This document shows positions 61 to 55,763 of a stretch of 64,000 nucleotides of DNA, one piece after another; positions within the stretch are counted from its first letter, which is position 1; each line of letters starts with the position of its first letter. Source of the DNA: Rhizophagus irregularis (taxonomy: Eukaryota > Glomeromycota > Glomeromycetes > Glomerales > Glomeraceae); assembly GCF_026210795.1 (NCBI RefSeq), contig NC_089441.1, forward strand, positions 248,001 through 312,000. The letters run 5' to 3'. A program made the position numbers and the translations under genes. The notes under the pieces were generated by a model that saw only the letters and a program-made list of their open reading frames with translations, ran no database searches and was not told the DNA's origin.

Positions 61-3000
61 TTAATTATCCAATATTCTTGAACGATTATTAATTAATTCA
101 TTATAAGCTTTGTTCAAATCTATAATAAAGAATAAAAAAAGATCAATAAATGATTTAAGATATTAATTCATAAATTACTTACCATCTAAAGAAAATTCGT
201 AGGTTTGTGTACTATATCTTGAATCTAACAATACTTAGATAGATGTCAATATACTTAAAATATTTATTAAAAAATCAATTACATTAAATATGTACCTTCT
301 ACGTTGTCTTCTTTGGAGGTACCTTCAAAAGGAACTAGTTGTATTGGAGATTTTGCTTCTATAATACAAATTATTAATTATTTAAAGTTATTTCAAAGAA
401 AAAATTAATTATTAAATTCGTACCAATTTTCTGTATTTTATCTATTATTGACAAATTATTTGTTAATAAAATAATTAATGTAATATTATTAATAATAAAT
501 AAACTTACTGTAATTATCTTCGATTTCCTCTTTAAATTTAATATAAAAAATATCCCATTAATAATTTGTTGTTATCTTCAGTTAAGGAAAAAGACGTCAT
601 TTGAACTTACCAATTTCTAATAAGTAAAGTTATTTAATTATTAAACAATAAAAATAAGGTTAATATTTTGCTATTAGTCAATAATTTGTTATTAACTTAC
701 TATCATGATAACCTAATTAGTAATTAATAAAGTTATTAAATAAAAGATTTAATTATTATAATTATTATGCAATTAAGTAATGATAGAAATAAACTTACGT
801 CCAACTTTAAAATTTGAATATTGTTTTGTTATTCAATAAGCGAAAGTTATTAAATATCGTTAGCGGATGATATAATTAATTTATAATGTGATAATGTAAA
901 TTAACTTACTATCTTCACTTTCTTTAAATTATAGATATAAAAAATGAAAAGTTTTGATATAGTTATCAACAGTAATTTGTCATTAATATCCTAAAAAAAA
1001 TGATATAAACTAAAACTTACGATAATCTAATTAATTAAGCAAAATTATTTGATTATTGTTAGTAAATAATTTAGTTATATATAATTACCACTCACGGACC
1101 TTTTCCCGACAGGACATTTTCGACAGCCTAACGCTGGCCGTTTGATCACGTGTTCGTGCCAATGTCCTGTCGGGAAATCATCCGTCGGGAAGTCGTGCTG
1201 TAACCGTCATTACTGGATTATAATAAAATAGACTTACTTGCTTTAAATATAAATATAAGAAATATGATATCCAAATGTTAAAGATTAATACTTTGTTATT
1301 ATTTGATAATTTGCTATTATCATTAAGAAAATAATTTTAATAACTTACTTTCGTCTGATAACGTAAATTGATAAAGTTATTTAATAACAGTTAGCAAATG
1401 ATTCAATTATTATATAAGTTATTAATATAAATAAATATAAACTTACTTATCACTTTAAAATACAAATATAAATATATATTCAAATATTAAATATTTTGTT
1501 ATTATTTAATAATTTTCCAAAAAAATAATGTTATTAAATCCAATTTACTTACATTCGCCTAATAATGTAAATTAATAATGTTATTTAATAATTGTTTTGC
1601 AAACGATTTAATTATTATGTTAATATACTTACATTTAACTTTAAAATATAAATAAAAATATATATATTCGAATATTAAATATTTTGTTATTATTTAATAA
1701 TTTTCCAAAAAAAATAATGTTAATAAATCTGACTTACTTTCACCTAATAATGTAAATTAATAAAGTTATTTAATAACGGTTAATAAATGATTTAATTATT
1801 ATACAAATATCCCTATAAAAATTTTTATCCAATTATTTCCATTATTTCTTCGTGGCTTTCGTAAAAATTCCGTGAAAATGATACATTCACGGGAAAAACA
1901 TGGAAATATAAAACACGGATTAACATTTTTTACAGGGAAATATATAAATGAACTTACCAACTTTAAAGTGTAAATATAAAATTATATTCCAAAAGTTGTT
2001 AGCAAATAATACAATTATTACATAACTAAATTATAATATATATATATAGTCTTACCTTCTCCAAAGTCTTTGTAATATAAAATATTTATGATGTAAATAT
2101 TAATATTCAGTTTTATTTTAAAAATTTGTTGCTATTTTAAGAAAGATATAACTTACCGACTTCTAGTAATTATAAAGTTGTCAATAATAATTAGCAGATA
2201 TGGTCTAATTGTTGTATAATTTAATATGTAAGCAAATTTACCATCTTTAAATTTAAAAATATATTAGTTTGACATGTTGTTATTTAATAATTTTTTATTA
2301 AGAATAATAAGCAGCAAATGACTTAATCATTATATAACTAAGTTATAACATAAATAAACTTACTCATTACTTTATAAATAGATATAATAGATATTAAGTG
2401 GTTAAATGATTTAATATTAGTTTTGTTATCATTTAATAATTTTGTTATTTTAAGGAAAAAAATGTTATTGTTAAATTTGACTTTACCAATAGGAACTAGT
2501 AAGCAAAGTGATTTATTTAATAACTGTTAGTATAAGATTTAATTATTAAATAATTAATATAGATAAACTTACTAGCATTATCTACAATTGAAATATTGAC
2601 ATGATATACAAAAAATATATTCCAATGATTATTTAGTAATTTATTTAATGGAAAAGTTAATAATCTAACTTACCGGAACCTAATAAATTAGCAAAGTTAT
2701 TAAGAATCATTAATGGATGATTTATCATAAATAGTTAAGTTAAAATGCAAAAAACTCACGCTTAAACTTTTTGGCTATAAAAGCTATAAAAAAAACAATG
2801 TTTCAAGTTAATAAAATTTTTATATAGATTTATATGTTAAAATTGGTATTAAGTTATATTGATAACTTTCTAGATAATTGCTTATATTAAAGGAAAGAGG
2901 ATGTTGAAAATTAATTTAATAGTTTGACTTACATTTAAATATTCGTTTTAGAAAATATAATGGATGCTTGCGTTTTTCTTCTATTTTGATTTTAAAATAA

Positions 3001-6000
3001 ATTATATTATGATTATAATTATTTGATGATATGTTTATATATTAACTGGCTTACCATCATCTATAATTTAATAATTTAATAGATAGTAAAATAATATGTA
3101 TTCCAAAAGTTTCATATTTGATTATAATTAAATATATAAATATATACAATCAGACCTCTATGTACCGATATCCTATATACCTGTATGCCTGTACCGATAA
3201 ATTTTCTATGTCCCGTTTCACAATTAATAAGAAACCGATATTATATATAGTTTCACGATGTAACAATTGTAACATGTACCGTTGTACCGATACTTTTCTT
3301 TGCCCCTTTATAATTAATACATAGTAAGATGTACTGATACTTTAGGTTACACTAGTATTAATTCGGGCCAACACTATAAATTAAATTTGGCCGAAGTTAA
3401 CATAAAGGTTCCATCCAAATCACATGACATTTTAATATATTGAGTTTGCATAATGCTGGCAAGAATTGGATTTTGGCCTGCATTATGATTCACTGATGAC
3501 GGTATAATCGGTATATGTAACGGATTGTAACGATAATTTGATATACCGATATATTTTCCCCAAACCAACAGTATCGGTACATAGAGGTCCGACTGTATTC
3601 TGTAAATAAATAAAATAAAATAAAAATGTTTTACATGAACAAACATACCTATAAATAAATAAATAAAAAAGTATTGTTAATGATAAATTTGTCAACTAGA
3701 TGGTTTGAAATATAGTTTCGGGCGAAACTATTTTCAAATCCGAAACAAGCTTCGCCGAAACTTCCGAAACAAAATTTGGAAATGTTTTGTAGATCAGTTA
3801 GGTGAAACTAGTTTCGCCCGAAATACTAGTTTGAAAGAAATGATATTAAGTTTAACTTACGTTTTTGTCCTAATAATCAATTAAAATTATAAAGTTATTG
3901 GTTAATTTAATGTCATCCGGATGAATGAACTTATTAAGGATATTGATATAACTTACGTTTTCCTGATAGTTAGATGAAATATAAAAATGCAAAATTAATT
4001 TAATGAATAGATGTTTAGAAAGAAAAGGACAATTAATGTCTAACTTACCAAATATTTTTTTAAGATAGTAGAACGGTCGTTTATGATTAATAGATGCTTT
4101 ATTACCTAAAATAATGAAATAATAATTATGCTTAATTAAGATATCTGACAGAATTCAATATTTTTAAAAAAGAATATCTTCATAAAAATTCAAATTTTGG
4201 AATTTTGGTATCTATAATTGAGTATTGCTAAATATCACCGCTGGTGATTGTCACCTTACCAGAATTAGGGTAGAATTTTGGGCAGAATTAAAAATGGCAT
4301 GAAATTCTGCCCGTTAATATTTGCTAATGCTGGTGCGGTGAGAATCACCAGCGGTGAGATTTAGTAATACCCTCTACAATTTTGGAGCTTTCAATCTTAA
4401 CTTCTAATTAACGAAGTGCTTTGTTTCATTCATTTCATACTCTAATAAAAATATTTATATACCATTAAAATTGGTTGAAAATCCAGAAATATTCTCATGC
4501 TTTTTGGTTTCATACTCTAAAAAAGGGACAAAATTCAATATATACTGTATAATATTTATTAATTCATAGTACGTTTTAAATTACTACAATAGTATACCTG
4601 CTTGAATACTAATTTCATTCAAGTTTGCTACAGGAGGTAGAGGAGATATTTCTATGTCCGCATCATTTGTTTTACATGTTAAACTAAGAGAATATGCTCT
4701 GGTTTTATATCCTAAAAAAAAAATCAGGATTATAACATAAATTTTTGCTTAAATGTAATACACATAAATATTTGTGCTTCATATACGGCACCTGATTCAA
4801 TATTATCATTATTTACGGAATTAGATCGAGATGATAATGAACAAGAAGTAGAATTTGATGAAACATTATCATCAGTCATTTTGAATTGTTCTATCATTTT
4901 TTCGAATATTTCAGGTAAACAAGAAGCGTCAGGCCTTTTTAATGGATCAGAATCCCAACATTGTTTCATAATATTAGCATAAAAATATGGTGTTCCTTTA
5001 ACATCTTCAGGTCTCTGTCCATCAAGAACCGCAAATGCAAGTTCTATATTATGAGGGTAATTTGAAAATGGAGGTTTTTTTGATGTTAATTCCCACATTA
5101 TCATACTTATACTATACACTTCTGATCGCTTTGTATATGGTTCATGTCTTAAAACTTCAGGAGCGATATAAGGTAAAACTCCTTGAATGTTATTTGTATC
5201 TTTTAAGGTAAATAGAAAGGTTATTAGTAATATTTAAAATATCGTAAAAAAAAAATCGTTATTTTTTTAATCATTTACCTATTTCCGAGCCAATTAGTTG
5301 ACAAAGTCCAAAATCACTTACAAAAATTCTATCACCTTCATCTACTAAAATATTTTTACAATGGAAATCTCTATGGAGTAAGTTCATTTGATGAAGAGAA
5401 TTTAATGCTTTTGAAAGTTCAAGAAGAATCTTTGCTCTGTCGATCCAAGTTAATTTTGGAAAAAATTTATAAATATAATTTCGTAAATCTCCATACTCTG
5501 CATGTCTTATTATCATGGCGTATTTATTTCCGTCGAGTGAATGAGGTGATTTCGTTATTCCATAAAATGGGATAACTCTTGGACCACGGCATTCATGGTG
5601 AAATTTAAGCTAATAAATCACAAAAATAAATCACAAAGATTAATTTTTCAAAGAAACGATTATTATTATTTTTTTTTTTTACCTCGTTTAAAATAAGATC
5701 ACTGATATTATCAGATCCATTAATGGATTTTAAAACAACTTTACAAGTTACTTGTTTTGGAATCACAGGAGCCAAAGACATATTTGAAGACAAATTCCAA
5801 ATTCCAAAATAGACTTTTGAACTTCCTCCATTCGCTAAATGTTTTATATTTTCTAAATTTGAACTTGGTATCCATTCAATAAAATCATCACAATATTTTG
5901 AATTTAGTTGAGTCTCTTTAATAAATTCATCCAGTTTTAAATTTCCACTTAACAATTTAAAAAAATTATTTGTTCCACTATTTTGTATTTCATATGTACT

Positions 6001-6147
6001 AGTAATTCGCGGAGGAAGAAATTGCTTTCTACAAAGTTTATTTGGATAGTTCATTATTTTCTGATTACATTTTGTACAAATGTTATCATATTCTGGATCT
6101 TCTGTCACATTCATGTTTTGATTAAAGTATTTTCTAATAAAATTCAA
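61..6147 (-). CDS. Kinase-like protein with CxxC N-terminus and a 32-exon micro-exon tail
   Basis: Predicted protein kinase of about 614 residues in 35 exons. The core is exons 6147-5683, 5609-5279 and 5199-4792. The N-terminus has a Cys pair motif (CTKC) and a further Cys, suggesting metal binding. The kinase domain shows a Gly-rich loop (LANGGSSKVYFG), a VAIK-type Lys (TCKVVLK), HRDFHCKNIL catalytic loop, SDFG, and YIAPEV activation-segment end, so all key catalytic residues are present. It resembles the TKL/Sel1-type kinase families expanded in Glomeromycotina; the substrate is unknown. The tail exons run from 4711-4598 to a terminal exon 119-61 ending in TAA. Every internal tail exon is a multiple of 3 nt and phase 1 on both sides, and the joined frame stays open. 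The donor after exon 3 (gtgccg, just below 4792) is unusual and the least certain junction. The start at 6147 is the first Met upstream of the Cys motif. Confidence 0.8.
1091..1206. mobile_element. GC-rich palindromic insertion (MITE-like) in an intron
   Basis: A GC-rich island in otherwise AT-rich intron sequence. It carries inverted arms CCCGACAGGACATT near 1104 and AATGTCCTGTCGGG near 1160. It lies between the predicted micro-exons at 1021-1026 and 1238-1240. There is no coding potential. I could not define a target-site duplication. Confidence 0.5.
1811..1937. mobile_element. MITE, CCCTATAAAA family, with 6-bp TSD
   Basis: A 127-bp element beginning CCCTATAAAAA and ending TTTTTTACAGGG, flanked on both sides by AAATAT (1805-1810 and 1938-1943). 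Internal sequence around ATTCCGTGAAAATGATACATT is shared, in inverted orientation, with the copy at 34108-34287. It sits inside an intron of the kinase tail. Confidence 0.7.
3147..3595. mobile_element. Non-autonomous Tc1/mariner-like TIR element
   Basis: Terminal inverted repeats of about 24 bp: CAATCAGACCTCTATGTACC at the left, and the inverted form of CAGTCGGACCTCTATGTACC at the right. Both ends are flanked by TA, as expected for Tc1/mariner/pogo-type insertion. The interior has GTACCGATA/TATCGGTA repeats and no transposase. The open frames here are by-products of the repeat. It is inserted in an intron of the kinase tail. Confidence 0.65.
3712..3832. mobile_element. Short hairpin element with GTTTCGGGCGAAAC ends
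   Basis: Inverted arms around GTTTCGGGCGAAACTA (left) and CTAGTTTCGCCCGAAAT (right) enclose about 90 bp rich in GAAAC/GTTTC. It looks like a small MITE in the same large intron as the preceding TIR element. Boundaries are approximate. Confidence 0.45.
4222..4377. mobile_element. MITE with 34-bp inverted ends
   Basis: The left end GTATTGCTAAATATCACCGC and the right end, read in reverse complement as GTATTACTAAATCTCACCGC, form imperfect TIRs of about 34 bp. It lies in the 356-bp intron between exons 4516-4463 and 4105-4049 of the kinase gene. No clear target-site duplication was found. Confidence 0.55.
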
Positions 6148-12018: not shown

Positions 12019-13750
12019 TTAGAATGACCTTGGTTTAATCTTAACCTTTAATTCACGACAAGAGTTAATAAAACCAGATTCATATTTAATTGGTGCGTCA
12101 TAATCCACCAAATCAACATCATAACTTCTGTAAATACATGCTATTAAACATTTTAATTCTATAATTGCCAATTTTCTTCCAGGACACATTCTAATTCCAC
12201 CTCCAAACATAGAATAAGTATTTTTAAGTTTTTTCTTTTCAAGTAAATATTTATCTTTATCACTTTCTTCAACTTTATAAAATCTTTCAGGATCGAATTT
12301 TTCAGGATCTGTCCAATAATTTTTATTTTTCATTATTGAGCCAAAATACATATGAAATACAGATCCTTTTGGCCATTCACATCCTCCAACGTTATCACTT
12401 TCAGAACTTACGCGACCGATCATAAAAGCTACAGGACTATGCCGATTTACTTCTTTGATAACTGCATCGCAATAATGTAATTCTTCAATTTCTTTAAATG
12501 TTATAGGTTTTGTTGAGTCATTTCCAAAAACTTCATCTAATTCTTGACGTAATCGTTTTTTTACTTCAGGATGATGTTCGAGAAAATATACGACAAAGCA
12601 AAACACACTCGCCGACTATAATTTAAAAAGAAATGAGTTTATATAGGATATTATTTTTTTTTTAAAAAAAAAAAAAGATTAAAATTTTTAATTTACTTAC
12701 AGTATCAGTTCCTGCGATAATCGACTCGAATATATTACCAAAAATCTCTTTATCTACCATTGGTCTCGACATATCTACATCGTCACTATGTTTAATAATA
12801 TTTATATCACGTGGAGTATTTGCGGTTATATGTGACGTTAATATATCATGACGAAGAGGTTGATCTAATGGTGTATTCTCAATTTCATATCTTCTTTCTT
12901 TAATAATTTTTCTTATTCTATTAAAAAGAGTTTCCTTATTTTTTAATAACATCTTTATTTTTTCTCGGAAAAATGGAACATTATTACGTATAAACTTATT
13001 AAGAACAAAAAAATAACCAACACCACTCATATAAGTTTCGATTGATTGAACAAATTCTTCAGAATATTCCATTTTTGCTTGTTCAGTTTTATCTAAAGTC
13101 TTAATACTTTCAGGATCAACAACTGTATAATAAAAAGCAGCAACGGAATTATTTTTTACTCCAGTTGCAATATTAAAAATAATTTCATTTGTAAATCTAT
13201 GCATCCATTTTCCAAGATCCAATTCTTGATTTTCACCAATTTTATTCCAATAAATTTCCATTTCTTTCCATAATTCATATGTCCATTCTATAGCTTGATG
13301 ATTAAAACTTGGTGTTAACATAGCCTGAGTAAAAAATTGACGATTAAATTTCCAAGATTTGGGTACATTATTATGGCCAACTCCTACTGCACTAACTCCA
13401 TATTCAACAAGTCCTTCTGTATTATTAAATCTAATAGGATATTTAGTTTTTGTTGAAGTTGTATTCATATTTTCAAGTAGATCTGGTCTACATAATACGA
13501 CTATTCGTTGTCCTGCATAATTTACTTCAAACATGTCGCCATATTGTTTATGCAATAATTTATACCATTCACCTAAACTATAACCAATTTTTTGATGAAT
13601 GTTACCAACAATTGGAAGTGGGATAGGACCTGGTATAGGATTTATACGAGTGAAATAACGATAATAAAAATGAGATACATAACCGATTATAAAAAGTATT
13701 AAGAGAGAGGGTATGTCAGAAAATCCGAACGGTAATATATTAATTGCCAT
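12019..13750 (-). CDS. Cytochrome P450 monooxygenase
   Basis: Two exons, 13750-12701 and 12615-12019, joined by an 85-bp phase-0 GT-AG intron, give about 548 residues, a normal length for a microsomal P450. Visible landmarks in order: an N-terminal hydrophobic anchor (residues about 13-30), a Pro-rich hinge (NPIPGPIPLPIVGN), the I-helix AGTDTS spanning the intron, the K-helix ExxR as EVNRH, the PERF region as DPERFYK, and the heme-binding loop FGGGIRMCPGRKLA with its Cys ligand. It should be an ER-anchored heme-thiolate oxygenase needing a reductase partner. The substrate cannot be told; the motifs look unlike canonical CYP51. Nothing appears broken. The start is the first Met, directly before the anchor. 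Confidence 0.9.
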
Positions 13751-14399
13751 TGTTATTTTTTGATTTTATTTTTATTTTATTTTATTTTTTTTTCTTTGAA
13801 GATACGCTCTTTATATAGCTTAAAAATTCGACATCACCCCATATTTTTTTTTTTCGTGAAGCTGTTGTGCAAAGATTATTATTAATTCTAAAAAAAATTT
13901 CATTTAATTCATTTCGAGTTCTAATTGAAAAAGTTATAAAAAATTTGTCGATTGTCGATCATATACCAAAATTTCCGTTATAATATGGAATATGGGAGAG
14001 GAGCAAGGAGCTATTATCACAGAGAATAATGGGTGATGAGTGATCGGCTATAAAATTTGCCATTTACACACTTACCTAATTTATTACATAAGAATTTAAA
14101 TGAAACGCGAGTGATTAATTTCCGGTCAGGCTAAGATCGGCATTCTCGTCATAATTAATCCGGTCGCACCCGATTGGCAATAAATAAGCAATTACGAAAT
14201 TCTTTTTTAATTTGCAAAATTAAATCTTAAATGTAAACAAAACTTAAGAAGAATAAGTTAAAAAATTATGCACTTAATATTGTAAAAAAGGAGTTCACAT
14301 TATACACATCAAAAATTCTATCATGTTTCATGTTTGATAACCACTAAAATTATGAAAATTTGTTAATATGCTGTAGAAAAATAGAAAAAGTTATGAAAT
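13751..14399. other. Upstream region of the P450, no gene seen
   Basis: AT-rich sequence. A TATATAG-like word with pyrimidine tracts sits just above the P450 start, but I cannot call a promoter. No coding frames are supported. Confidence 0.35.
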
Positions 14400-41448: not shown

Positions 41449-44400
41449 TTACGTGTAAGTAAGGATTATTTTGATTTGTTCTTCATTGATCAATTTTTGT
41501 TCCAATTGAACAATCTTTTCTTCCAATTGAACAATTTTTTTTTCCAACTTGGCCTTTAATTTAATAGTAAGCTTTTGATTTTGTGAGAGACCTTTTACCA
41601 TATCGTGCAACTCAATTTTTTCTTGTTCTATTTGTTCATAATTAATTCGAAATTGATTTAATTGATTTTCTAATTGCTCTTTTTGTTCAATTAAAGCTTG
41701 TTTTTCATTTTGCAAACAAGTAATTAGAGACTGTAAAGTATTTTCTTTTTCCGCAAATTCTCTAATTTGTGCAGTTGAGTTAAATCTCAAATCTTGATAA
41801 TTTTGTTCCAATTGAAAATTTTGTAGTTGTAAATTAACTAATTCCGATTTATATGCTAAAATCGTTTCTTTTAATTCATTTTGAGAAAATTGATAATTAG
41901 TTTCAGCAAACTTCTCTAGCTTAATAAAATTTTCTTCCGTTTTCTTATAATTAATTCGGAATTGAATTTGTTGAAATGTTAATGCTTTAATATCAGCTTT
42001 TAATTGATCTTGCAGATTATTTTTTCCTCGATTTAACTGACTGGTTTGTTTTAACCATTCAGATAAATTGCTAGAAAAGCCTTGCTTTTCATTTTGCAAA
42101 CAAGTAATTAGGGTCCTGAAAGTATTTTCTTTTTCCGCAAATTCTCTAATTTGTGCAGTTGAGTTAAATCTCAAATCTTGATAATTTTGTTCCAATTGAT
42201 TTTGACGTGTTAAAATCATTTCTTCTATTTCATTTTGAGAAACTTGAAAATGACTTATATTTTCATCTTCTATTTTCTTCTTATTAATTTGAGATTGTGT
42301 TAATTGGTGACTTTTATATTGACCTTGTTGAAATTTCAATTCTTGAATATCAACTTCTGATTGAGCCAATTGTTCTTGCGGATTATTTTTTTCTTGATTT
42401 AACTGACTGGTTTGTTTTAACCGTTCAGATAAATTTCTAGAAAAGTCTTGCTTTTTATTTTGTGGGTTTTCTATTTCTGCAAATTAACTGCTAAGTTAGA
42501 TTTCAAATTTTGATTAATTAATTATATAATTAAATAAATTACTTACCCTCTAATAATTTTTAAAATAAAGAATTTAGTTATTTTTAATTATACGCAAATA
42601 TTATATAAATATAATAGAATTAAATAAATAACTTACTAGTAACTAAAGAAAATATTTGAAATAAAAAATTCAGTTAGTTTAAATTATATATAAATATCAT
42701 ATAAATATAATAAATTACTTACGATCTAAAATATTTGAATAATTTTTTAAATAAAGAATTTAGTTAGTTTAAATCATATGTAAATATTATATAAATATAA
42801 TAAAATTACTTACGTTCTAAAATATTTGAATAATTTTTTAAATAAAGAATTTAGTTGGTTTAAATTATATGTAAATATTATATAAATATAATAGAATTAA
42901 ATAAGTAACTTACTCGCTATATTATTAAATAAATAATTTTTTGAATAAAGAATTTAATTAGTTCAAATTATATGCAAATATTATATAAATATAACAGAAT
43001 TAAATAAATAACTTACGAACTATATATTATTAAATAAATAATTTTTTACATAAAGTATTTAGTTAGTTTAAATCATATGTAAATATTATATAAATATAAT
43101 AGAATTAAATAAATAACTTACTCCCTATATTATTAAATAAATAATTTTTTTAAATAAAGAATTTAGTTAGTTTAAATTATATGTAAATATTATATAAATA
43201 TAATAGACTTACTTACGTTCTAAAATATTTGAATAATTTTTAAAAAAAGAATTTAGTTAGTTTAAATTATATGTAAATATTATATAAATATAATAGAATT
43301 AAATAAATAACTTACTCCCTTTATTATTAAATAAATAATTTTTTTAAATAAAGAATTTAGTTAGTTTAAATTATATGCAAATATTATATAAATATAATAG
43401 ATTTACTTACATTCTAAAATATTTGAATAATTTTCTAAATAAAGAATTTAGTTAGTTAAATTATACGTAAATTATTATATAAATATAATAAATTACTTAC
43501 GTTCTAAAATATTTGAATAATTTTTTAAATAAAGAATTTAGTTAGTTTAAATCATATGTAAATATTATATAAATAATATAGAATTAAATAAATAATTTAC
43601 CAACTAAAAGAAATTACAAAATAATTTTTAAAGAATTCAGTTAGTTTAAATTATACATAAATTATTATATAAATATAATAAATTACTTACGTTCTAAAAT
43701 ATTTGAATAATTATTAAATAAAGTATTTAGTTAGTTTAAATCATATGTAAATTATTATATAAATATAATAATAAATTACTTACGTTCTAAAATATTTGAA
43801 TAATCATTAAATAAAGTATTTAGTTAGTTTAAATCATATGTAAATATTATATAAATATAATGGAATCGAATAAATAACTTACCCGCTATATTATTGAATG
43901 CTTTTTTAATTTTTTAAATAAAAAATTTAGTTAGCTTACATTATATGTAAATATGATATAAACATAATAGAATTAAATAAATAATTTACCAACTAAAAGG
44001 AATTACAAAATAATTTTATAAATAAAGTATTTAGTTAGTTTAAATCATATGTAAATATTATATAAACATAATAGAATTAAATAAATAACTTACAAGCTAT
44101 ATTATTAAATAAATAATTTTTTAAAATAAAGAATTTAGTTAGTTTAAATTATACATAAATATTATATAAATATAACAGAATTAAATAAATAACTTACAAG
44201 CTATATTATTAAATAAATAATTTTTTAAATAAAGAATTTAGTTAGTTTAAATCATATGTAAATATTATATAAATATAATATAATTACTTACGTTCTAAAA
44301 TATTTGAATAATTTTTTAAATAAAGAATTTAGTTAGTTTAAATTATATGTAAATATTATATAAATATAATAGAATTAAATAAGTAACTTACTCGCTATAT

Positions 44401-47400
44401 TATTAAATAAATAATTTTTTAAATAAAGAATTTAGTTAGTTTAAATTATATATAAATATTATATAAATATAATAGGATTAAATAAATAACTTACAAACTA
44501 TATTATTGAATAAATTATTTTTAAATGAAGAATTTAGTTAGTTTAAATTATATGTAAATATTATATAAATATAATAGGATTAAATAAATAACTTACAAAC
44601 TATATTATTAAATAAATAATTTTTTTAAATAAAGAAATTAGTTAGTTTAAATTATCATACATAAATATTAGTATATAAATATAACAGAATTAAATAAATA
44701 ACTTACAAGCTATATTATTAAATAAATAATTTTTTAAATAAAGAATTTAGTTAGTTTTAATTATACGCAAATATTATATAAATATAATAGAATTACTTAC
44801 GATCTAAAATATTTGAATAATTTTTTAAATAAAGAATATAGTTAGTTTAAATCATATGTAAATATTATATAAATATAATAGAATTAAATAAATAAATTAC
44901 TCCCTATATTATTAAATAAATAATTTTTTTAAATAAAGAAATTAGTTAGTTTAAATTATATGTAAATATTATATAAATATAATAGATTTACTTACGTTCT
45001 AAAATATTTGAATAATTTTTTAAATAAAGAATTTAGTTAGTTTAAATTATATGTAAATATTATATAAATATAATAGAATTAAATAAATAATTTACCAACT
45101 AAAAAAAATTACAAAATAATTTTTAAATAAAGAATTTAGTTAGTTTAAATTATATGTAAATATTATATAAATATAATAGAGTCAAATAAATAACTTACAC
45201 CCTATATTATTAAATAAACAAGTTTTTTAAATAAAGAATTTAGTTAGTTTAAATTATATGTAAATTATATGTAAATATTACATAAACATAATAGAATTAA
45301 ATAAACAACTTACAAGCTATATTATTAAATAAATAATTTTTTTAAATAAAGAATTTAGTTAGTTTAAATTATATGTAAATATTATATAAATATAATAGAT
45401 TTACTTACGTTCTAAAATATTTGAATAATTTTTTAAATAAAGAATTTCATTAGTTTAAATTATATGTAAACATTATATAAATATAATAGAATTAAATAAA
45501 TAACTTACTCCCTTTATTATAAAATAAATAATTTTTTTAAATAAAGAATTTAGTTAGTTTAAATTATATGTAAATATTATATAAATATAATAGATTTACT
45601 TACGTTCTAAAATATTTGAATAATTTTTTAAATAAAGAATTTAGTTAGTTTAAATTATACGTAAATTATTATATAAATATAATAAATTACTTACGTTCTA
45701 AAATATTTGAATGATTTTTTAAATAAAGAATTTAGTCAGTTTAAATCATATGTAAATATTATATAAATAATATAGAATTAAATAAATAATTTACCAACTA
45801 AAAGAAATTACAAAATAATTTTTTAAATAAAAAATTTAGTTAGTTTAAATTATACATAAATCATTATATAAATATAATAAATTACTTACGTTCTAAAATA
45901 TTTGAATAATTATTAAATAAAGTATTTAGTTAGTTTAAATCATATGTAAATATTATATAAATATAATGGAATTGAATAAATAACTTACCCCCTATATTAT
46001 TGAATGATTTTTTAATTTTTAAATAAAGAATTTAGTTAGTTTAAATTATATGTAAATATTATATAAACATAATAGAATTAAATAAATAAATTACTCCCTA
46101 TATTATTAAATAAATAATTTTTTAAATAAAGAATTTAGTTAGTTTAAATTATACGTAAATTATTATATAAATATAATAAATTACTTACGTTCTAAAATAT
46201 TTGAATAATTATTAAATAAAGTATTTAGTTAGTTTAAATTATACGTAAATCATTATATAAATATAATAAATTACTTACGTTCTAAAATATTTGAATAATT
46301 ATTAAATAAAGTATTTAGTTAGTTTAAATCATATGTAAATATAAATAATATAGAATTAAATAAATAATTTACCAACTAAAAGAAATTACAAAATAATTTT
46401 TTAAATAAAGAATTTAGTTAGTTTAAATCATACGTAAATTATTATATAAATATAATAAATTACTTACGTTCTAAAATATTTGAATAATTATTAAATAAAG
46501 TATTTAGTTTTAAATTATATGTAAATATTATATAAATATAATGGAATTGAATAAATAACTTACCCACTATATTATTGAATGATTTTTTAATTTTTTAAAT
46601 AAAAAATTTAGTTTAGTTTAAATTATATGTAAATATTATATAAACATAATAGAATTAAATAAATAACTTACAAGCTATATTATTAAATAAATAATTTTTT
46701 TAAATAAAGAATTTAGTTAGTTTAAATTATACATAAATATTATATAAATATAACAGAATTAAATAAATAACTTACAAGCTATATTATTAAATAAATAATT
46801 TTTTTAAATAAAGAATTTAGTTACTTTAAATTATATGTAAATATTATATAAACATAATAGAATTAAATAAATAATTTACCAACTGAAAGAAATTACAAAA
46901 TAATTTTTTAAATAAAGAATTTAGTTAGTTTAAATTATATGTAATTATTATATAAATATAAATAGAATTAAATAAATAACTTACTCCCTTTATTATTAAA
47001 TAAATAATTTTTTAAATAAAGAATTTAGTTAGTTTAAATTATATGTAAATATTATATAAATATAATAGATTTACTTACGTTCTAAAATATTTGAATAATT
47101 TTTTAAATAAAGAATTTAGTTAGTTTAAATTATACATAAAATATTATATAAATATAATAAATTACTTACGTTCTAAAATATTTGAAAAATTTTTTAAATA
47201 AAGAATTTAGTTAGTTTAAATCATATGTAAATATTATATAAATAATATAGAATTAAATAAATAATTTACCAACTAAAAGAAATTACAAAATAATTTTTTA
47301 AATAAAAAATTAGTTAGTTTAAATGATACATAAATTATTATATAAATATAATAAATTACTTACGTTCTAAAATATTTGAATAATTATTAAATAAAGTATT

Positions 47401-50400
47401 CAGTTAGTTTAAATCATATGTAAATAATATATAAATATAATGGAATTGAATAAATAACTTACCCGCTATATTATTGAATGATTTTTTATTTTTTCAAATA
47501 AAAAATTTAGTTAGTTTACATTATATGTAAATATTATATAAACATAATAGAATTAAATAAATAATTTACCAACTAAAAGAAATTACAAAATAATTTTTTA
47601 AATAAAGAATTTAGTTAGTTTACATTATATGTAAATATTATATAAACATAATAGAATTAAATAAATAATTTACCAACTAAAAGAAATTACAAAATAATTT
47701 TTTAAATAAAGAATTTAATTAGTTTAAATAATATGTAAATATTATATAAATATAATAGATTTACTTACATTCTAAAATATTTGAAATAAAGAATTTAGTT
47801 AGTTTAAATTATATGTAAATATTATATAAATATAATGGAATTGAATAAATAACTTACCCCCTATATTATTGAATGATTTTTTAATTTTTAAATAAAGAAT
47901 TTAGTTAGTTTAAATTATATGTAAATATTATATAAATATAATAAAATTAAATAAATAACTTACTCCCTATATTATTAAATAAATAATTTTTTTAAATAAA
48001 GAATTTAGTTAGTTTAAATTATATGTAAATATTATATAAATATAATAGATTTACTTACGTTCTAAAATATTTGAATAATTTTTTAAATAAAGAATTTAGT
48101 TAGTTTAAATTATATGTAAATGTTATATAAATATAATAGAATTAAATAAATAACTTACTCCCTATATTATTAAATAAATAATTTTTTTAAATAAAGAATT
48201 TAGTTAGTTTAAATTATATGTAAATATTATATAAATATAATAGATTTACTTACGTTCTAAAATATTAGAATAATTTTCTAAATAAAGAATTTGGTTAGTT
48301 TAAATTATATGTAAATATTATATAAAAATAATAGAATTAAATAAATAATTTACCAACTAAAAGAAATTACAAAATAATTTTTTTAAATAAAGAATTTAGT
48401 TAGTTTAAATTATATGTAAATATTATATAAATATAATAGATTTACTTACATTCTAAAATATTTGAATAATTTTTTAAATAAAGAATTTAGTTAGTTTAAA
48501 TCATATGTAAATATTATATAAATATAATAGATTTACTTACGTTCTAAAATATTTGAATAGTTTTTTAAATAAAGAATTTAGTTAGTTTAAATCATATGTA
48601 AATATAAATAATATAGAATTAAATAAATAATTTACCAACTAAAAGAAATTGCAAAATAATTTTTTAAATAAAAAATTTAGTTAGTTTAAATTATACATAA
48701 ATTATTATATAAATATAATAAATTACTTACGTTCTAAAATATTTGAATAATTTTTTAAATAAAGAATTTAGTTAGTTTAAATTATACGTAAATTATTATA
48801 TGAATATAATAAATTACTTACGTTCTAAAATATTTGAATAATTTTTTAAATAAAGAATTTAGTTAGTTTAAATCATATGTAAATATTATATAAATAATAT
48901 AGAATTAAATAAATAATTTACCAACTTAAAGAAATTACAAAATAATTTTTTAAATAAAGAATTTAGTTAGTTTAAATTATACGTAAATTTTTATATGAAT
49001 ATAATAAATTACTTACGTTCTAAAATATTTGAATAATTTTTTAAATAAAGAATTTAGTTAGTTTAAATCATACATAAATTATTATATAAATATAATAAAT
49101 TACTTACGTTCTAAAATATTTGAATAATTATTAAATAAAGTATTTAGTTTTAAATTATATGTAAATATTATATAAATATAATGGAATTGAATAAATAACT
49201 TACCCACTATATTATTGAATGATTTTTTAATTTTTTAAATAAAAAATTTAGTTTAGTTTAAATTATATGTAAATGTTATATAAATAATAGAATTAAATAA
49301 ATAAATTACTCCCTATATTATTAAATAAATAATTTTTTTAAATAAAGAATTTAGTTAGTTTAAATTATATGTAAATATTATATAAATATAATAGATTTAC
49401 TTACATTCTAAAATATTTGAATAATTTTCTAAATAAAGAATTTAGTTAGTTTAAATTATACGTAAATTATTATATAAATATAATAAATTACTTACGTTCT
49501 AAAATATTTGAATAATTTTTTAAATAAAGAATTTAGTTAGTTTAAATCATACATAAATTATTATATAAATATAATAAATTACTTACGTTCTAAAATATTT
49601 GAATAATTTTTTAAATAAAGAATTTAGTTAGTTTAAATTATACGTAAATTATTATATGAATATAATAAATTACTTACGTTCTAAAATATTTGAATAATTT
49701 TTTAAATAAAGAATTTAGTTAGTTTAAATCATATGTAAATATTATATAAATAATATAGAATTAAATAAATAATTTACCAACTTAAAGAAATTACAAAATA
49801 ATTTTTTAAATAAAGAATTTAGTTAGTTTAAATTATACGTAAATTTTTATATAAATATAATAAATTACTTACGTTCTAAAATATTTGAATAATTTTTTAA
49901 ATAAAGAATTTAGTTAGTTTAAATCATATGTAAATATTATATAAATAATATAGAATTAAATAAACAATTTACCAACTAAAAGAAATTACAAAATAATTTT
50001 TTAAATAAAGAATTTAGTTAGTTTAAATTATACGTAAATTATTATATGAATATAATAAATTACTTACGTTCTAAAATATTTGAATAATTTTTTAAATAAA
50101 GAATTTAGTTAGTTTAAATCATATGTAAATATTATATAAATAATATAGAATTAAATAAATAATTTACCAACTTAAAGAAATTACAAAATAATTTTTTAAA
50201 TAAAGAATTTAGTTAGTTTAAATTATACGTAAATTTTTATATGAATATAATAAATTACTTACGTTCTAAAATATTTGAATAATTTTTTAAATAAAGAATT
50301 TAGTTAGTTTAAATCATATGTAAATATTATATAAATAATATAGAATTAAATAAACAATTTACCAACTAAAAGAAATTACAAAATAATTTTTTAAATAAAG

Positions 50401-50907
50401 AATTTAGTTAGTTTAAATTATACGTAAATTATTATATAAATATAATAAATTACTTACTTTCTAAAATATTTGAATAATTATTAAATAAAGTATTTAGTTA
50501 GATTAAATCATATGTAAATATTATATAAACATAATAGAATTAAATAAATAACTTACTCCCTATATTATTAAATAAATAATTTTTTTAAATAAAGAATTTA
50601 GTTAGTTTAAATTATATGTAAATATTATATAAATATAACAGAATTAAATAAATAACTTACAAGCTATATTATTGAATAAATAATTTTTTAAATAAAGAAT
50701 TTAGTTAGTTTAAATTATATGTAAATATTATATAAATATAATAGGATTAAATAAATATCTTACAAGCTATATTATCAAATAAATAATTTTTTAAATCAAG
50801 AATTTAGTTAGTTTAAATTATATGTAAATGTTATATAAATATAATAGGATTAAGTAAATAACTAAGTTCATTCTATATACTTTGCCTTTTTTATAAATTT
50901 GAGCCAT
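41449..50907 (-). CDS. Coiled-coil protein gene with giant micro-exon/intron array (copy A)
   Basis: The coding exon 42476-41449 gives about 341 residues of Gln/Glu/Lys/Leu heptad-rich coiled coil. It includes an internal duplication: the block LEQNYQDLRFNSTAQIREFA..NEKQ appears twice. Upstream, the reading frame is set by a TTTGCAG acceptor at 42477, which requires a phase-1 entry. A candidate first exon (MAQIYKKGK) lies at 50907-50881, separated by about 85 tandem intron units. Exon 1 here is 27 nt, one short of the 28 nt in copy B, so with this start the frame would miss the coiled-coil frame unless another donor or start is used. The C-terminus is cut short: after INEEQIKIILT the sequence joins the 3' flank, by deletion relative to copy B. 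Function unknown; probably oligomerising or scaffold-like. Confidence 0.55.
42540..50870 (-). repeat. Tandem array of ~85 intron-like units separated by 3-nt exons
   Basis: Each ~97-bp unit, read on the minus strand, has a donor (GTAAGT or GTAAAT), AT-rich sequence with TTTATATAA, a CTAACTAAATTC branch-point-like motif, TTTATTTAAA, then an acceptor TTTTAG, ATATAG or TTTTAG-type, and exactly 3 nt before the next donor (one unit, near 42640, has 6). I count about 85. The triplets are mainly AAC (about 38), TTG (about 16), GGA and CTT, with a few AAT, CGG, GGG, TGG, CGA, TTT, ATC and others. The triplet correlates with the intron 3' type: AAC with AAATATTTTAG, TTG with TTTCTTTTAG plus GTAAAT, the rest with AATAATATAG. 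The array contains no frames of its own. Confidence 0.85.
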
Positions 50908-51403: not shown

Positions 51404-54400
51404 TTATTTTAATTATTAAGTCATGATCCGTGAAAGATCGACACAAAATTACTATTAAATTTTGGGGTAAAAATTTGTCGATCATTTATTAAATAAAAAT
51501 AACTGCTATCATTCGCAATAAGGCAAGTATTACTAAAACAAATTCACAGCTCAACCAGATCACATGACAAGCTGCGCAATAATGTAAAATATGGTTTGAC
51601 AAAAAAAATTTCATTTAACCGACTTGACGAAAAATTTTTTCTTTGTAGCAGCTGTAGATTTTAGAGGTATACGTATATATAATACATAAATTTCACCTTT
51701 TCAATTTACGAATTTTTAACATTTATTAAACATTATTTATATTTCTCTCTTTATAAGTACTTGCTACAAGTATTTATTATGAATTTTCAGAGTCCATATT
51801 TTCTTCCAAAGTACGCAAAGCCATAGCCTCTTTCCATTTGCGTGAAAAAGTTGAAATCCAGTTTGTTATTGTAGTTACTTTAGGTATGTCATTTTCTTCA
51901 ATTTCTCCAAGTTCTGCACGCTTTAAAAGTTCTTCATGCATCTGTTGTGCATTTAATTTTTGACAAGGATTTGCTGTTCCAGTATGGAACATTGATTCTA
52001 AAAGATACTTTACTTGGGGAGATATTCTTTTTACTGGTCCACGCTGACGAGTTTTTTTATTTTTTTTTAGAGCCCATCCACTGGTAAACGTTTGTTGACT
52101 ACGCAAAAAAAAAAATAAATAAATAATACAATCAACAAATAAAGATGTGATTGTATAATATTTATACCTTTTGGTTTCCAATGATCTATTGTTTTCCAGG
52201 TTAGTCAGATCAGAAAGTATTTGGTTCACATATTCTTGGCGCTTATTATTGGTAATACAAATACATAATAGCAAATAGGATTATAATAAAGAATATAACA
52301 AAAATTCTAGAATTGAATATAACCTACCGATTCACTCTGTGTTGGATCTTGTTTGTCTAACAAGCAAATATGTTACTTTTATTTAGGAATAATATGGAAA
52401 CAGGTAAACTCACTTTCTTTATTTAAAATTGGTATATTCCATTGCTTAATTGATTGTGTATGAGATGTAAAAGTAGGATTTGGTTTTTCAATTTTTCGCT
52501 TTTTAACAATCTTTTCTATTTTTTCAAGTGACCATTCTTTCCACTCTCCAATTCCTGGTAGTGCACGTGCATGAATATATCCTACTTTTTCTTTGTCTGT
52601 GGGCCAAGTCCATTCTTGCAGGTTGGATATTCCCGTAATTGTGCCCAATTTTGCTTTATCTAAATTGAAAATAAATATTAGATTTATTTCAAGTTTTACA
52701 GCATGCTAATTAGAACTACAATTTACCATTATCTCTGTTAGGATTCAAATTAGAAACTTGGATGCCTGCTATACCTTTTACTGCTAATTCGATATCATCT
52801 CCAGAAATAACATCATATCCAAGCTTTACGTATCTTTTCATTGCTTGAGAAACCTTATTATTATCAATGAATTGATCAATCACTCAATCAGTATTATCTT
52901 TGACTCTCAATATAATAATATAGCAGAATGCACCTGTGCATGATGTGAATCAATCAAAGTTTTGGCTTCTCCTGCTTCAAGAAAGATCCATTTGCGAGGA
53001 ATTATATTATACCACTCCTTCCAATGTGCAATAATCAACATTAACTCTGTACAGTGGTAATGCATGCCGTTATCTGACATTATTGTTACCCATTTGGGTT
53101 TTGGATTCAATGTTTCAATTACAGTATGGAGGGAAGATGCAGTAAACCATGCATCTTGGCACGTATCGTTAGACCAGTGATCAAATACTTGAACATCCAG
53201 TTGATTTTGTTCCATATTTTTGGTATATACAAGTACAGAATGAAAACTCCAACCGCGTTTTCCAAAAAACTCTGTTTTGGTCTCATGTGCACTTTGAGGT
53301 AATATCCTCATTTTGTAATCTACAATCATTACAGCACCTTCTTCATCCAATTCTTCTAAATTTGTTCGTACATGAATATTCAAGTATGTTTTACGGGCAT
53401 GATGTGCCATCCATGCTATAAGTTTTTGCTGATATTCATCAAGAATTTCAAAATACTCTTCACTCATTGCTGCTTTTAATTCTTCAAAAAAACTAAAAAT
53501 ACTTTCACATTTTGAACAGGTAACTGGATGATTAAGATTACAGTCTCCAAAGGCATGTCATATACAATGACTAATACAGGAATTATGAACCGTGATACCA
53601 GCTGCTGTAACTTCCAGTTCTTTTGAATATTCTCGACGTATGTATCGACGCAATTCTTGTGATTTTGTTAATAAATGTTTCTAATAAGATAAAATATATT
53701 AGAATTCATACTTGCAAATTTTAATAAAATTTATTTTTACCTTTAGAGGTTCATCCATAACATGGGCAGAAATAATTACTCCAATATCTCCAAATACCAG
53801 ATAATCACAGTCATTACATGTAGAACATAATCCACCTAAATTTTCTCGGTACACATATTGACCACCTTCAAGACATGTCATAAAAGATGTATGACGCATA
53901 CCATTAGGATACTCTTCTGCAAATCTTTCCCATAATGCTTTTTTTGTGTCTTGTAAGTATTTGATTGGTTTTCCTGATTTTGCATCAGTTTTGTATGAAC
54001 TCATATTGACAAATTCTTTATCATTTAAAAATCTGTAAACCTTCTTCAGCAAATTATTGGTTTTACAAGTGAAGGGGATCCATAACCATTGATACGTGCA
54101 TGCTTGCGAGATTCTACAATAGTATGTGAACCAACCTGTATATATTTATTATAAAAACAATATAAAATTTTACATTATTGTATCAGTAATAATTTTTTGC
54201 AAATTTTTCATTGTCTTTTTTATGTCTAGTTTATTTACATAATTTTAAAAATAAAAGAATAAATAATTCAAGAATGTGTACATTAAAATTTTACATATAA
54301 AGCAAAACTATAAAATATTACATTCAAATTTTGTTTTAGTTCTCCATAGGTAAACTCATTGGAAATTATAGAAAGTATACGTCTTTTTCCATCAGGAGTT

Positions 54401-55763
54401 TTTTTGTTGTTAGCAAGTGCACGTTCAAAACACATCCAAAATGTATGTGTTGCGTTTGGCATATTCTTTGGAATACTAGTAAGAAAACCACTTTTATATA
54501 AAGCAGCAAATGCTACCTTGTCTGCTTCTCCATTTGGTGATTTTGTCCATAATTGACACTAATAAAAAAATATTTATTTTAGTGTTTGAAGATAAAAAAA
54601 ATAACAATAAAAATATCACAAATTTACTGACCTTTGATTCTTCAGATAACCAAGGAGTTATATTTGTTACACCAACTGCTTTTAGCATGGTTTGCCATGC
54701 ACTTAATTCACGTTCACTAAATTCATATCCTTTTGGATATATAGCATGCAAAGCAGGTTCTACTTCAATTATTGGATTTTCAGTTTTAACCCAACTTGTA
54801 AAAAAATATTTCCAATTAGCATTTGCCAGAGTTCTTCTTTTTACATGATAATCAAATAACCTTTTTAAAATATATTCATCATTCCAGTCATTAAGAGTGC
54901 ATTGAGTTCGATGCTGCTGAATTAGATTTTTTGTAATTGGATTATCAAGACCATAAAGTTGTGTGCCGGTAAATTTTTTCAGTTGTCCTGTTTTTTCCCA
55001 CACTTCATCTGGCGTTGCGCCTTTAAATTGTTTTATTAAAGCAGATTCTCGGTAAATTTCAACAATGCATTTTTCCCCTCAATCCGTGATACAAAAATTG
55101 ACTGCTTTCTTCCATATATATGAAGAAGGGATGATTGAAAACCTGAACCTGCATAACGCCATTTTTCACGTGAAGAAGTCCCTATACCATAAATAAAAAT
55201 TATACAATTTTTTACATTAACAGTAACGGGAATATGTTGAATATCTTGTTTTAAAGTTTCAAGGATATTTTTGTCATTCCAACCCATTGCTTGATACCCT
55301 GAATAGCGTGTTAAAGTATTGAAATGGTTTTTATAAGCTGTAGAAATAGCCTTTGTAGAACTTGGCTCTGTAACAACATGTAAACCACTTTGACAACAAT
55401 ATATTGGCATTAATTTGTTATTACCAGAATCAGTTTGTATAGTTAAAATGAAATCTACTTCGTTAAGACAAACTTTAGTCTGTTGTCCCAGCCTAATCGG
55501 AAATAAAGTTTCATTTTCATTTGAAATTATCCACCAATAAAAAGAATAAGGTCCATAGTGAAGTTCAAGAACTATAGTTCCTGGTTTTATTAAAGTAACG
55601 TGTAAAGTTGAAGCCATTATGACAGTTTTTAAAAGTTGTCAACGAGAGATTTAAATTTATTACAATTGGTTATAATGTATCTTATCCCCAAATTTACTAT
55701 ACACAACTCATATGATCTGATGCCGATCATTCACAGATCATGACTTAATAATTTTGATAATTC
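51404..55763 (-). mobile_element. 4.35 kb DNA transposon with TIRs and DDE-type transposase gene
   Basis: Inverted termini are AATTATTAAGTCATGATC(C/T)GTGAA at about 51411 and its inverted copy ending at about 55755. The subterminal GATCG(A/G)CA and AAATTTGGGG-like words also pair, so the TIRs extend some 75 bp with interruptions. The element carries one multi-exon minus-strand gene (51777-55617). It lies just beyond the point where segmental copy A stops matching copy B (51392), consistent with insertion after or at the duplication edge. The exact ends and target-site duplication are not resolved. Confidence 0.7.
51777..55617 (-). pseudogene. Broken transposase-like gene with FYRC-like and DDE domains
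   Basis: Nine exons follow from frame and splice sites: 55617-54632, 54558-54322, 54135-53741, 53680-52934, 52853-52727, 52659-52414, 52356-52328, 52241-52168 and 52098-51777. The first exon ends in a segment (YAGSGFQSSLLHIYGRKQSI ... GATPDEVW) that resembles an FYR C-terminal (FYRC) domain. Exon 4 has Cys/His pairs, then an RNase H-like core: Asp in AVMIVDYKM, Asp in TIMSDNGMHYH 82 residues on, and Glu in FLEAGEAK, spaced like a DD(31-34)E transposase. The last exon has a basic patch (KKNKKTRQRGPVKR). Breaks: a frameshift near 55070 in a G/A run, one near 54065, and an in-frame TGA at 53560-53558. The exact superfamily is unknown to me. Confidence 0.65.

What the first reader, a model, noticed from the sequence alone, without database searches (positions are those of the whole stretch)
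61..4711. Kinase C-terminal tail split into 32 exons, all 3n and phase 1
Reading acceptors and donors on the minus strand gives 31 internal tail exons of 3-114 nt, all multiples of three and all phase 1, plus a terminal exon with a stop. The joined frame is open throughout. Any combination could be skipped without frameshift, giving a very large number of possible tails on one kinase. This is the same logic as the array at 42.5 kb but with divergent, individually distinct exons, as if an old array had diversified.
Basis: partly seen in the sequence, partly recalled or inferred. Interest (0 to 1): 0.88.

Follow-up and report, generated by a model that had tools for sequence, protein, structure and literature searches.

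The report
Kinase tail built from tiny exons
In a root-symbiotic fungus, the end of a signalling protein appears to be written as a long string of very small coding pieces, most of them one to four codons long, and close relatives of the gene carry arrays of nearly all one-codon pieces at the same place; if they are used, this is a new way to grow and vary a protein without breaking its reading frame.

Summary
On the minus strand of 61-4711, 31 internal exons (3-114 nt) plus a terminal exon can be read, all multiples of three, all phase 1, with an open joined frame. The genome matches Rhizophagus irregularis DAOM197198. The decisive support is comparative. Two kinase paralogues (C7, C31) carry 35 and 26 array micro-exons, mostly 3 nt, at the homologous place; both join into open frames that end in the same terminal exons, which are under purifying selection and present in R. 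clarus. Genome-wide, beside a 3-nt exon, the next exon is 3 nt in 3108 cases, 4 nt in 2, 5 nt in 2, 6 nt in 35. 'An old array that diversified' is well supported. 'Any combination can be skipped' is not shown: skipping keeps the frame, but 13 of 528 junctions make stops. Against: the three published models found for this gene stop just after exon 5 by read-through, and no RNA evidence was available. I think the micro-exons are real coding exons, mostly included.

The parts
5683..6114 (-). E1, start codon and N-terminal part of the kinase
   Evidence: N-terminus shared with published models P0001-P0003
5279..5609 (-). E2, kinase domain (HRD and DFG motifs)
4792..5199 (-). E3, kinase C-lobe (APE motif); ends in phase 1
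4598..4711 (-). E4, 114 nt, YKTRAYSLSL tail peptide
   Evidence: in P0001-P0003
4463..4516 (-). E5, 54 nt, EYETK tail peptide; last exon of the published models, which read through its donor to TAA at 4457-4455
4049..4105 (-). E6, 57 nt, KRPFYYLKKIFG; similar peptide to E10
3957..3962 (-). E7, 6 nt
3861..3869 (-). E8, 9 nt
3061..3860 (-). 800-nt intron that holds a repeat-like element with inverted ends (about 3592-3150)
   Evidence: sequence, by eye
3055..3060 (-). E9, 6 nt
2933..2980 (-). E10, 48 nt, KHPLYFLKRIFK; likely duplicate of the E6 peptide (7 of 12 base differences at third positions)
2760..2783 (-). E11, 24 nt (or 15 nt from 2774)
2674..2679 (-). E12, 6 nt
2573..2581 (-). E13, 9 nt; its downstream intron aligns to the C7 array unit from the donor on
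2487..2495 (-). E14, 9 nt, weaker donor GTAAAG
2364..2369 (-). E15, 6 nt; downstream intron 84% identical to the C7 unit over 51 nt, from the donor on
2242..2244 (-). E16, 3 nt, weaker donor GTAAAT
2157..2162 (-). E17, 6 nt
2056..2067 (-). E18, 12 nt
1958..1960 (-). E19, 3 nt
1744..1957 (-). 214-nt intron with a dispersed repeat at about 1807-1947 (40 other listed matches, a lower bound)
1738..1743 (-). E20, 6 nt; first of a tandem pair of two-exon units
1633..1638 (-). E21, 6 nt
1553..1558 (-). E22, 6 nt; second copy of the about 188-bp unit
1447..1452 (-). E23, 6 nt (two stop codons in phase 0, open in phase 1)
1349..1354 (-). E24, 6 nt
1238..1240 (-). E25, 3 nt
1021..1026 (-). E26, 6 nt
910..921 (-). 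E27, 12 nt; downstream intron aligns to the C7 unit from the donor on
799..804 (-). E28, 6 nt; downstream intron aligns to the C7 unit from the donor on
701..712 (-). E29, 12 nt
611..616 (-). E30, 6 nt
509..529 (-). E31, 21 nt
424..441 (-). E32, 18 nt, weaker donor GTACGA
296..358 (-). E33, 63 nt (a second donor inside it is possible)
183..224 (-). E34, 42 nt, conserved motif SRYSTQTYEFSLD
61..119 (-). E35, terminal exon, DLNKAYNELINNRSRILDN and stop; conserved in paralogues and R. clarus

Best explanation
This is a protein kinase gene whose C-terminal tail is encoded by an old, diverged array of symmetric (phase 1-1) micro-exons. The array began as tandem duplication of a unit 'intron + one-codon exon' in an ancestor of six kinase paralogues. 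Because each unit adds whole codons in a fixed phase, its duplication or loss does not break the frame. In C7 and C31 the array is still near-uniform (mostly 3 nt per exon); in the window gene the exons have lengthened by whole codons (E7-E32: 3-24 nt, E10 48 nt) and the introns have diverged and taken up repeats. I think the micro-exons are spliced by intron definition (27 of 32 tail introns are 63-119 nt, and most exons are too short for exon definition) and are mostly included. They form a linker between the kinase and a conserved C-terminal motif (Y.TQTY.FSLDDLNKAY..LINNRS), so that linker length and charge change between paralogues as units come and go. Shown: anatomy, homology, open frames, the 3n rule, selection on the terminal exons. 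Inferred: splicing itself, inclusion level, linker function.
For: 31 of 31 internal exons 3n and phase 1, 0 stops in 196 joined codons against 13 and 31 in the other frames. Paralogues at C7 and C31: a pattern that allowed any exon length of 3-24 nt gave 35 and 26 array exons, all 3n, and joined frames of 571 and 556 aa (stop included) with no internal stop, ending in the same terminal exons, while intron lengths take all residues mod 3. Terminal exons E34-E35: pN/pS 0.22-0.35 in 6 of 6 pairwise comparisons of 4 genes, 32 codons, and conserved in R. clarus P0011; so something probably still splices to them, 1.0-4.6 kb past the kinase exon in three paralogues. Genome-wide exon length beside a 3-nt exon: 3 nt 3108 (control 2), 4 nt 2 (0), 5 nt 2 (1), 6 nt 35 (1). 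True neighbours make 0 stops in the tail, C7, C31 and 42.5-kb arrays; for the last, 0 against 6.64 expected on shuffled order, 0 of 20000 shuffles. Three published models of the L059-type gene (P0009, P0010, P0012) run from the kinase through peptides matching phase-1 exons of about 9-24 nt into the same terminal exons. The kinase tree puts the six array-bearing genes, array status partly by eye, on one side of a split with support 0.98. Six stretches of the window tail introns align to a C7 unit, four of them starting at the donor base.
Against: No RNA or peptide data. The three published models found for this gene end by read-through after E5. By eye, none of the 13 published proteins I fetched contains an array exon below 9 nt. 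A blind splice parser did poorly. The junction-stop test is not significant for the tail alone (0 against 0.94), and two other arrays (L016, L018) showed 1 stop each, against 2.27 and 1.93 expected. Repeat units are not independent. The E35 matches that led to the paralogues were weak by themselves (E 0.097-0.61) and were accepted after reading the sequence. The unit alignments used AT-rich DNA with the low-complexity filter off. One paralogue of the group, L060, has a stop inside its kinase match and may be a pseudogene.
Confidence: 0.62

Rival explanations
1. Combinatorial tail: the same exons are real, but many are skipped independently, so that one kinase gives a very large set of tails.
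For: All 31 exons are symmetric; 2,078,766,464 of 2^31 exon subsets are free of junction stops (96.8%) and no single skip in the tail makes a stop. Four published models of the L059-type gene (P0009, P0010, P0012, P0013) use four different exon sets, all in frame by eye.
Against: Those four are gene models on four different contigs, not isoforms seen in one strain, and P0013 stops by read-through before the last exon. In the sister arrays, 10% random skipping would put a stop in 43% (42.5-kb array), 17% (C31) and 10% (C7) of transcripts, which does not look like a system built for free skipping.
Confidence: 0.2
2. The array is dead or intronic: the working kinase ends after E5 by read-through, or E5 is spliced over the whole array to E33-E35; the micro-exons are a satellite-like repeat with chance splice signals.
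For: Published models end after E4 or E5 in most cases; 3-nt exons are hard to splice by exon definition (established knowledge); the arrays are AT-rich and partly tandem repeats.
Against: Exon lengths keep to multiples of three genome-wide while intron lengths drift; joined frames stay open in three genes; stops are avoided at true neighbours of the 42.5-kb array; terminal exons are under selection. The last point alone would also fit E5 joined directly to E33-E35.
Confidence: 0.15
3. Recursive splicing: the micro-exons serve as stepping stones for removing one long intron piece by piece and mostly do not stay in the mRNA.
For: Acceptor and strong donor lie 3-12 nt apart in most units, as at ratchet points (the resemblance is recalled, apart from the abstract start of PMC8605326 in the listing).
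Against: Ratchet points would not need coding constraint; here length and junction stops are constrained, and the whole region is only 4.65 kb.
Confidence: 0.03

Closest known systems
Schistosome micro-exon genes (MEGs)
   Same: Many short exons, in most cases multiples of three, missed by automatic annotation; several spliced isoforms (found passages of PMC10526429: exons 3-81 bp in its abstract, 6-81 bp in its text).
   Different: MEGs code for secreted proteins, mostly with 15-bp exons and introns of 0.1-5 kb; here it is a kinase tail, exons go down to 3 nt, introns are mostly 63-119 nt, and the paralogues show tandem one-codon units.
Tropoelastin and titin PEVK exons (recalled; one search gave no useful paper)
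   Same: Long series of symmetric exons that can be skipped in frame to tune a flexible region.
   Different: Those exons are much longer and animal; no homology was tested.
Introners and other intron-gain elements (PMC9860276: abstract start and a term search only)
   Same: Similar introns in unlinked genes: the 42.5-kb unit matches arrays on C1, C21 and C24 and one place inside the C31 kinase array.
   Different: As I recall, known introners insert singly; here units stand in tandem, each carrying a codon. The terms Rhizophagus, Glomero, tandem and microexon do not occur in that paper's main text.
Single-nucleotide exons of Arabidopsis (PMC4674806) and Fusarium (PMC12940212); titles and abstract starts in the listing
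   Same: Show that extremely small exons can be spliced.
   Different: Reported as single cases, not arrays of dozens.

Membership tests
Protein kinase (PF07714/PF00069) | Kinase domain over the curated cut-off | tested here: met
   PF07714 135.1 bits against 23.1, PF00069 116.4 against 31.7
Protein kinase (PF07714/PF00069) | Catalytic motifs HRD, DFG, APE | tested here: met
   HRD at 223, DFG at 243, APE at 267
Paralogue clade on C13, C7 and C31 of this genome | Shared C-terminal exons E34-E35 | tested here: met
   Present in C7 and two C31 genes, in models P0009, P0010, P0012 and in R. clarus P0011; P0013 has the E34 motif only
Schistosome-type micro-exon gene | Most exons short and multiples of three | tested here: met
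   31 of 31 internal tail exons are 3n, 22 of them 12 nt or shorter
Schistosome-type micro-exon gene | Long introns, up to 5 kb | tested here: not met
   27 of 32 tail introns are 63-119 nt, longest 800
Schistosome-type micro-exon gene | Secreted product | not tested
   No signal peptide test run; a kinase domain makes it unlikely
Schistosome-type micro-exon gene | Isoforms seen in transcripts | not testable with these tools
   No RNA reads available
Introner-derived introns | Near-identical introns at unlinked loci | tested here: inconclusive
   Not seen for the window tail (only 1000-2000 was searched; outside matches lay within 1779-1988, chiefly a dispersed repeat; 40 of 460 candidates scored); similar units at unlinked loci for the 42.5-kb array

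The most novel reading that the evidence does not exclude
R. irregularis has a spliceable satellite: a tandem repeat of about 90-105 bp that carries its own acceptor, one codon and its own donor. Each copy adds exactly one residue to a protein, so arrays can grow, shrink and move between unlinked genes without breaking them, and whole protein stretches (acidic kinase linkers, coiled coils) are written one residue per exon. In two arrays the exon letters differ far more than the surrounding introns, whose columns are 81-92% alike on average, as if the codon were under diversifying selection or targeted mutation. The window tail is an old array of this kind in which exons have grown to several codons.
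Probability: 0.4. Interest if true: 0.95.

Novelty: new variant of a known kind. Interest (0 to 1): 0.8.

Why it matters
If the exons are used, this is a way to build and vary protein linkers by copying a repeat that is neutral to the reading frame, and it would mean that the spliceosome of this fungus handles dozens of consecutive 3-12-nt exons. It would also mean that published kinase models of this plant symbiont can be truncated: the three found for this gene stop before the array. Long RNA reads on a few genes would settle both points.

Tried and rejected
Blind splice parsing of the tail: too weak (17, 14, 14 and 9 of 29 exons at four settings; block-shuffled tails gave 10-16 exons where the real tail gave 23); not used as support.

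Nucleotide search for the tail array elsewhere in the genome (window 1000-2000 only, 40 of 460 candidates scored): outside matches lay within 1779-1988, chiefly a dispersed repeat inside the 214-nt intron; one further match was the tail itself (internal duplication). No other copy of this array was listed.

6-nt micro-exon pairs genome-wide: 16 matches against 20 in the reversed control; not enriched as a whole, although 3 lie in this tail, 5 in C21 arrays and 4 in C24 arrays.

Junction-stop permutations: for L046 and L054 the pattern matched the wrong strand and I dropped those two rows; L025 overlaps L036; L016 and L018 had 1 stop each; L021-L024 and the 61-kb array had 0.

Nearest-AG counts include lengths of 0: one in the tail, one in C7, two in C31.

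Structure prediction and fold search were not run: a linker of this kind is likely disordered and the answer would not decide splicing. A search for 2-nt second exons did not complete.

Literature: searches of the open PMC library listed no paper that, by title or abstract start, treats micro-exon arrays in arbuscular mycorrhizal fungi. Several lists were cut (for example 20 of 332, 25 of 85, 15 of 54, 8 of 127); subscription papers and preprints are mostly not covered. Of PMC10234402 I saw found passages and section 17; of PMC10526429 found passages; of PMC9860276 a term search without passages; all others only as search listings.
Full report
What it is. The window lies on contig C13 of a 146.7-Mb genome in 32 contigs. 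Database proteins of the same gene are named Rhizophagus irregularis, and the length of C13, 5,085,394, equals the scaffold N50 of the DAOM197198 assembly GCA_026210795.1 with 32 scaffolds. The gene on the minus strand of 61-6114 encodes a protein kinase (PF07714, 3.6e-39) with HRD, DFG and APE motifs.

Anatomy. E1-E3 carry the kinase. E4-E34 are 31 internal tail exons and E35 ends with TAA at 61. All 31 are multiples of three and enter in phase 1; 22 are 12 nt or shorter. Their 591 nt in 4651 bases read without a stop in this frame; the other two frames have 13 and 31 stops. 27 of the 32 tail introns are 63-119 nt; five are longer (149-800), one of them holding a dispersed repeat with 40 other listed matches. 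E6 and E10 encode the similar peptides HKRPFYYLKKIF and RKHPLYFLKRIF; of their 12 base differences, 1, 4 and 7 fall at codon positions 1, 2 and 3, as expected of a duplicated coding exon. E20-E21 and E22-E23 are a tandem pair of about 188 bp (150 of 183 aligned bases identical).

More than chance. Without using the parse, the distance from a GTAAGN donor in the array to the nearest AG is a multiple of three in 22 of 23 cases, at 7 to 19 times the donor density of the controls, where 25 of 61 are multiples of three. In the other arrays it is 36 of 36 (C7), 25 of 26 (C31), 65 of 67 (42.5 kb) and 8 of 9 (61 kb). A blind splice parser, in contrast, did not recover the tail well.

Paralogues. The nearest kinases are a cluster on C31 and one gene on C7 (kinase exons 59-78% identical to the window gene). 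Weak matches to E35 (E 0.097-0.61) lay 1.0, 3.6 and 4.6 kb past three of these kinases, and reading the sequence confirmed them. Between the E5-like exon and the terminal exons, C31:1011k has 26 array micro-exons (23 of 3 nt, 3 of 6 nt) and C7 has 35 (32 of 3 nt, the others 12, 15 and 21 nt), each behind a further 9-nt exon; both joined frames are open to the final stop. The search pattern allowed any length from 3 to 24 nt, so the 3n result was not put in; I chose the flanking exons by homology. Other C31 members, read partly by eye and only as far as the fetched DNA goes, range from no array (L057; L056 and L064 as far as read) through a few short exons (L058) and a short array (L060, whose kinase match holds a stop) to arrays (L059, L062). 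A kinase tree separates {window gene, L060, L062, L061, C7, L059} from {L056, L057, L058, L064, R. clarus P0011} with support 0.98. So the array is most simply ancestral to the first group; the window gene branches first within it. Six stretches of its introns align to a hand-composed C7 unit at E below 1e-4, with the low-complexity filter off; four begin exactly at the donor base.

Use of the downstream exons. E34-E35 evolve under purifying selection among four genes (pN/pS 0.22-0.35, 32 codons, 6 of 6 pairs) and also end the R. clarus protein P0011. A kinase that always ended after E5 would not be expected to keep them.

Genome-wide rule. Pairs of micro-exons 'TAG-exon-GTAAGT' 65-95 nt apart, first exon 3 nt: second exon 3 nt in 3108 places (reversed control 2), 4 nt in 2 (0), 5 nt in 2 (1), 6 nt in 35 (1). 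Exon length changes by whole codons. Of the six arrays visible among the first 100 or so listed places, four lie 0.8-2.6 kb upstream of a same-strand kinase hit among the 150 scored.

Frame at the junctions. In phase 1 a stop arises if an exon ending in T precedes one that starts with AA, AG or GA. True neighbours make 0 stops in the tail (0.94 expected on shuffled order), C7 (0.53), C31 (1.45) and the 42.5-kb array (6.64; 0 of 20000 shuffles); L016 and L018 had 1 each (2.27 and 1.93). Only the 42.5-kb result is significant alone, and its units are related. Phase 1 for that array is set independently by its downstream exon. Joined in phase 1 it reads ...ELELELEQQQWMEQLEQLEQFERKRREF... in front of a coiled-coil-like exon.

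Skipping. Any exon can be left out of the tail without a frameshift. 13 of 528 ordered pairs would make a stop, none by a single skip, and 96.8% of subsets are stop-free. In the 42.5-kb, C31 and C7 arrays, 10% random skipping would spoil 43%, 17% and 10% of transcripts. I therefore favour mostly constant inclusion, with the variety arising between genes over time rather than within one gene per transcript.

Published models. Thirteen proteins were fetched. By eye, five end by read-through after E5 (P0001-P0003 for this gene, P0005, P0006), two after E4 (P0007, P0008), one after a 9-nt exon that follows E5 (P0004), three run on to the terminal exons (P0009, P0010, P0012), one ends by read-through after the E34-like exon (P0013), and the R. 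clarus protein P0011 has a proline-rich tail without an array and the same end. P0009 groups with L059 in the tree; the tails of P0009, P0010, P0012 and P0013 match phase-1 exons of L059 of about 9-24 nt, in four different sets and with residue differences. None uses 3-nt exons; whether that is biology or the limit of gene finders I cannot tell.

Exon letters. In two arrays the exon columns are less alike than any of the 87-88 flanking intron columns (42.5-kb type B: 0.34, 0.50, 0.30 against a mean of 0.92; C31: 0.37, 0.28, 0.22 against 0.81). In the C7 array 15 of 88, and in the other 42.5-kb type 10 of 75, intron columns were as low as the highest exon column. The mechanical choice of units takes in a few false ones. 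This is the oddest observation and would fit diversifying selection on single residues, but constraint on introns or recent spread of introns would lessen it.

Verdict. A real and unusual coding arrangement, strongly supported by comparison and without RNA proof.

Noticed in passing
window 42480-50880, minus strand: About 84 micro-exons, nearly all 3 nt, upstream of a coiled-coil-like exon (42476-41449); joined in phase 1 they read rich in E, Q, L, K and R. The likely starter exon near 50907 seems to end in another phase than its sister's at 61 kb (by eye), which I could not resolve.
   Followed up: partly
window 60900-61900, minus strand: A smaller array of the same unit (10 micro-exons by pattern) in a gene with coiled-coil-like ORFs at 60101-58463.
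   Followed up: partly
whole genome G000: 3108 pairs of 3-nt micro-exons in arrays; mixed 3/6-nt pairs lie on many contigs. Four of the six arrays visible lie just upstream of a kinase hit.
   Followed up: partly
L061+L086, C31 kinase array (joined coordinates 3664-3723): One unit of the 42.5-kb type (88% over 66 nt) sits inside an array of the other type, which suggests exchange between unlinked arrays.
   Followed up: yes
E4, E5, E34 of the window gene and paralogues: Recurrent peptide pattern Y.T(K/R/Q)..Y..SL at the start of several tail exons, perhaps a short binding motif (by eye).
   Followed up: no
L056, C31:964800-966300: A paralogue whose tail, as far as read, is one long proline- and glutamine-rich exon with internal repeats instead of an array.
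   Followed up: no
window 12019-13765, minus strand: Two ORFs that look like parts of one cytochrome P450 gene (by eye).
   Followed up: no
window 51777-55638, minus strand: Transposon-like ORFs upstream of the 42.5-kb array gene (by eye).
   Followed up: no
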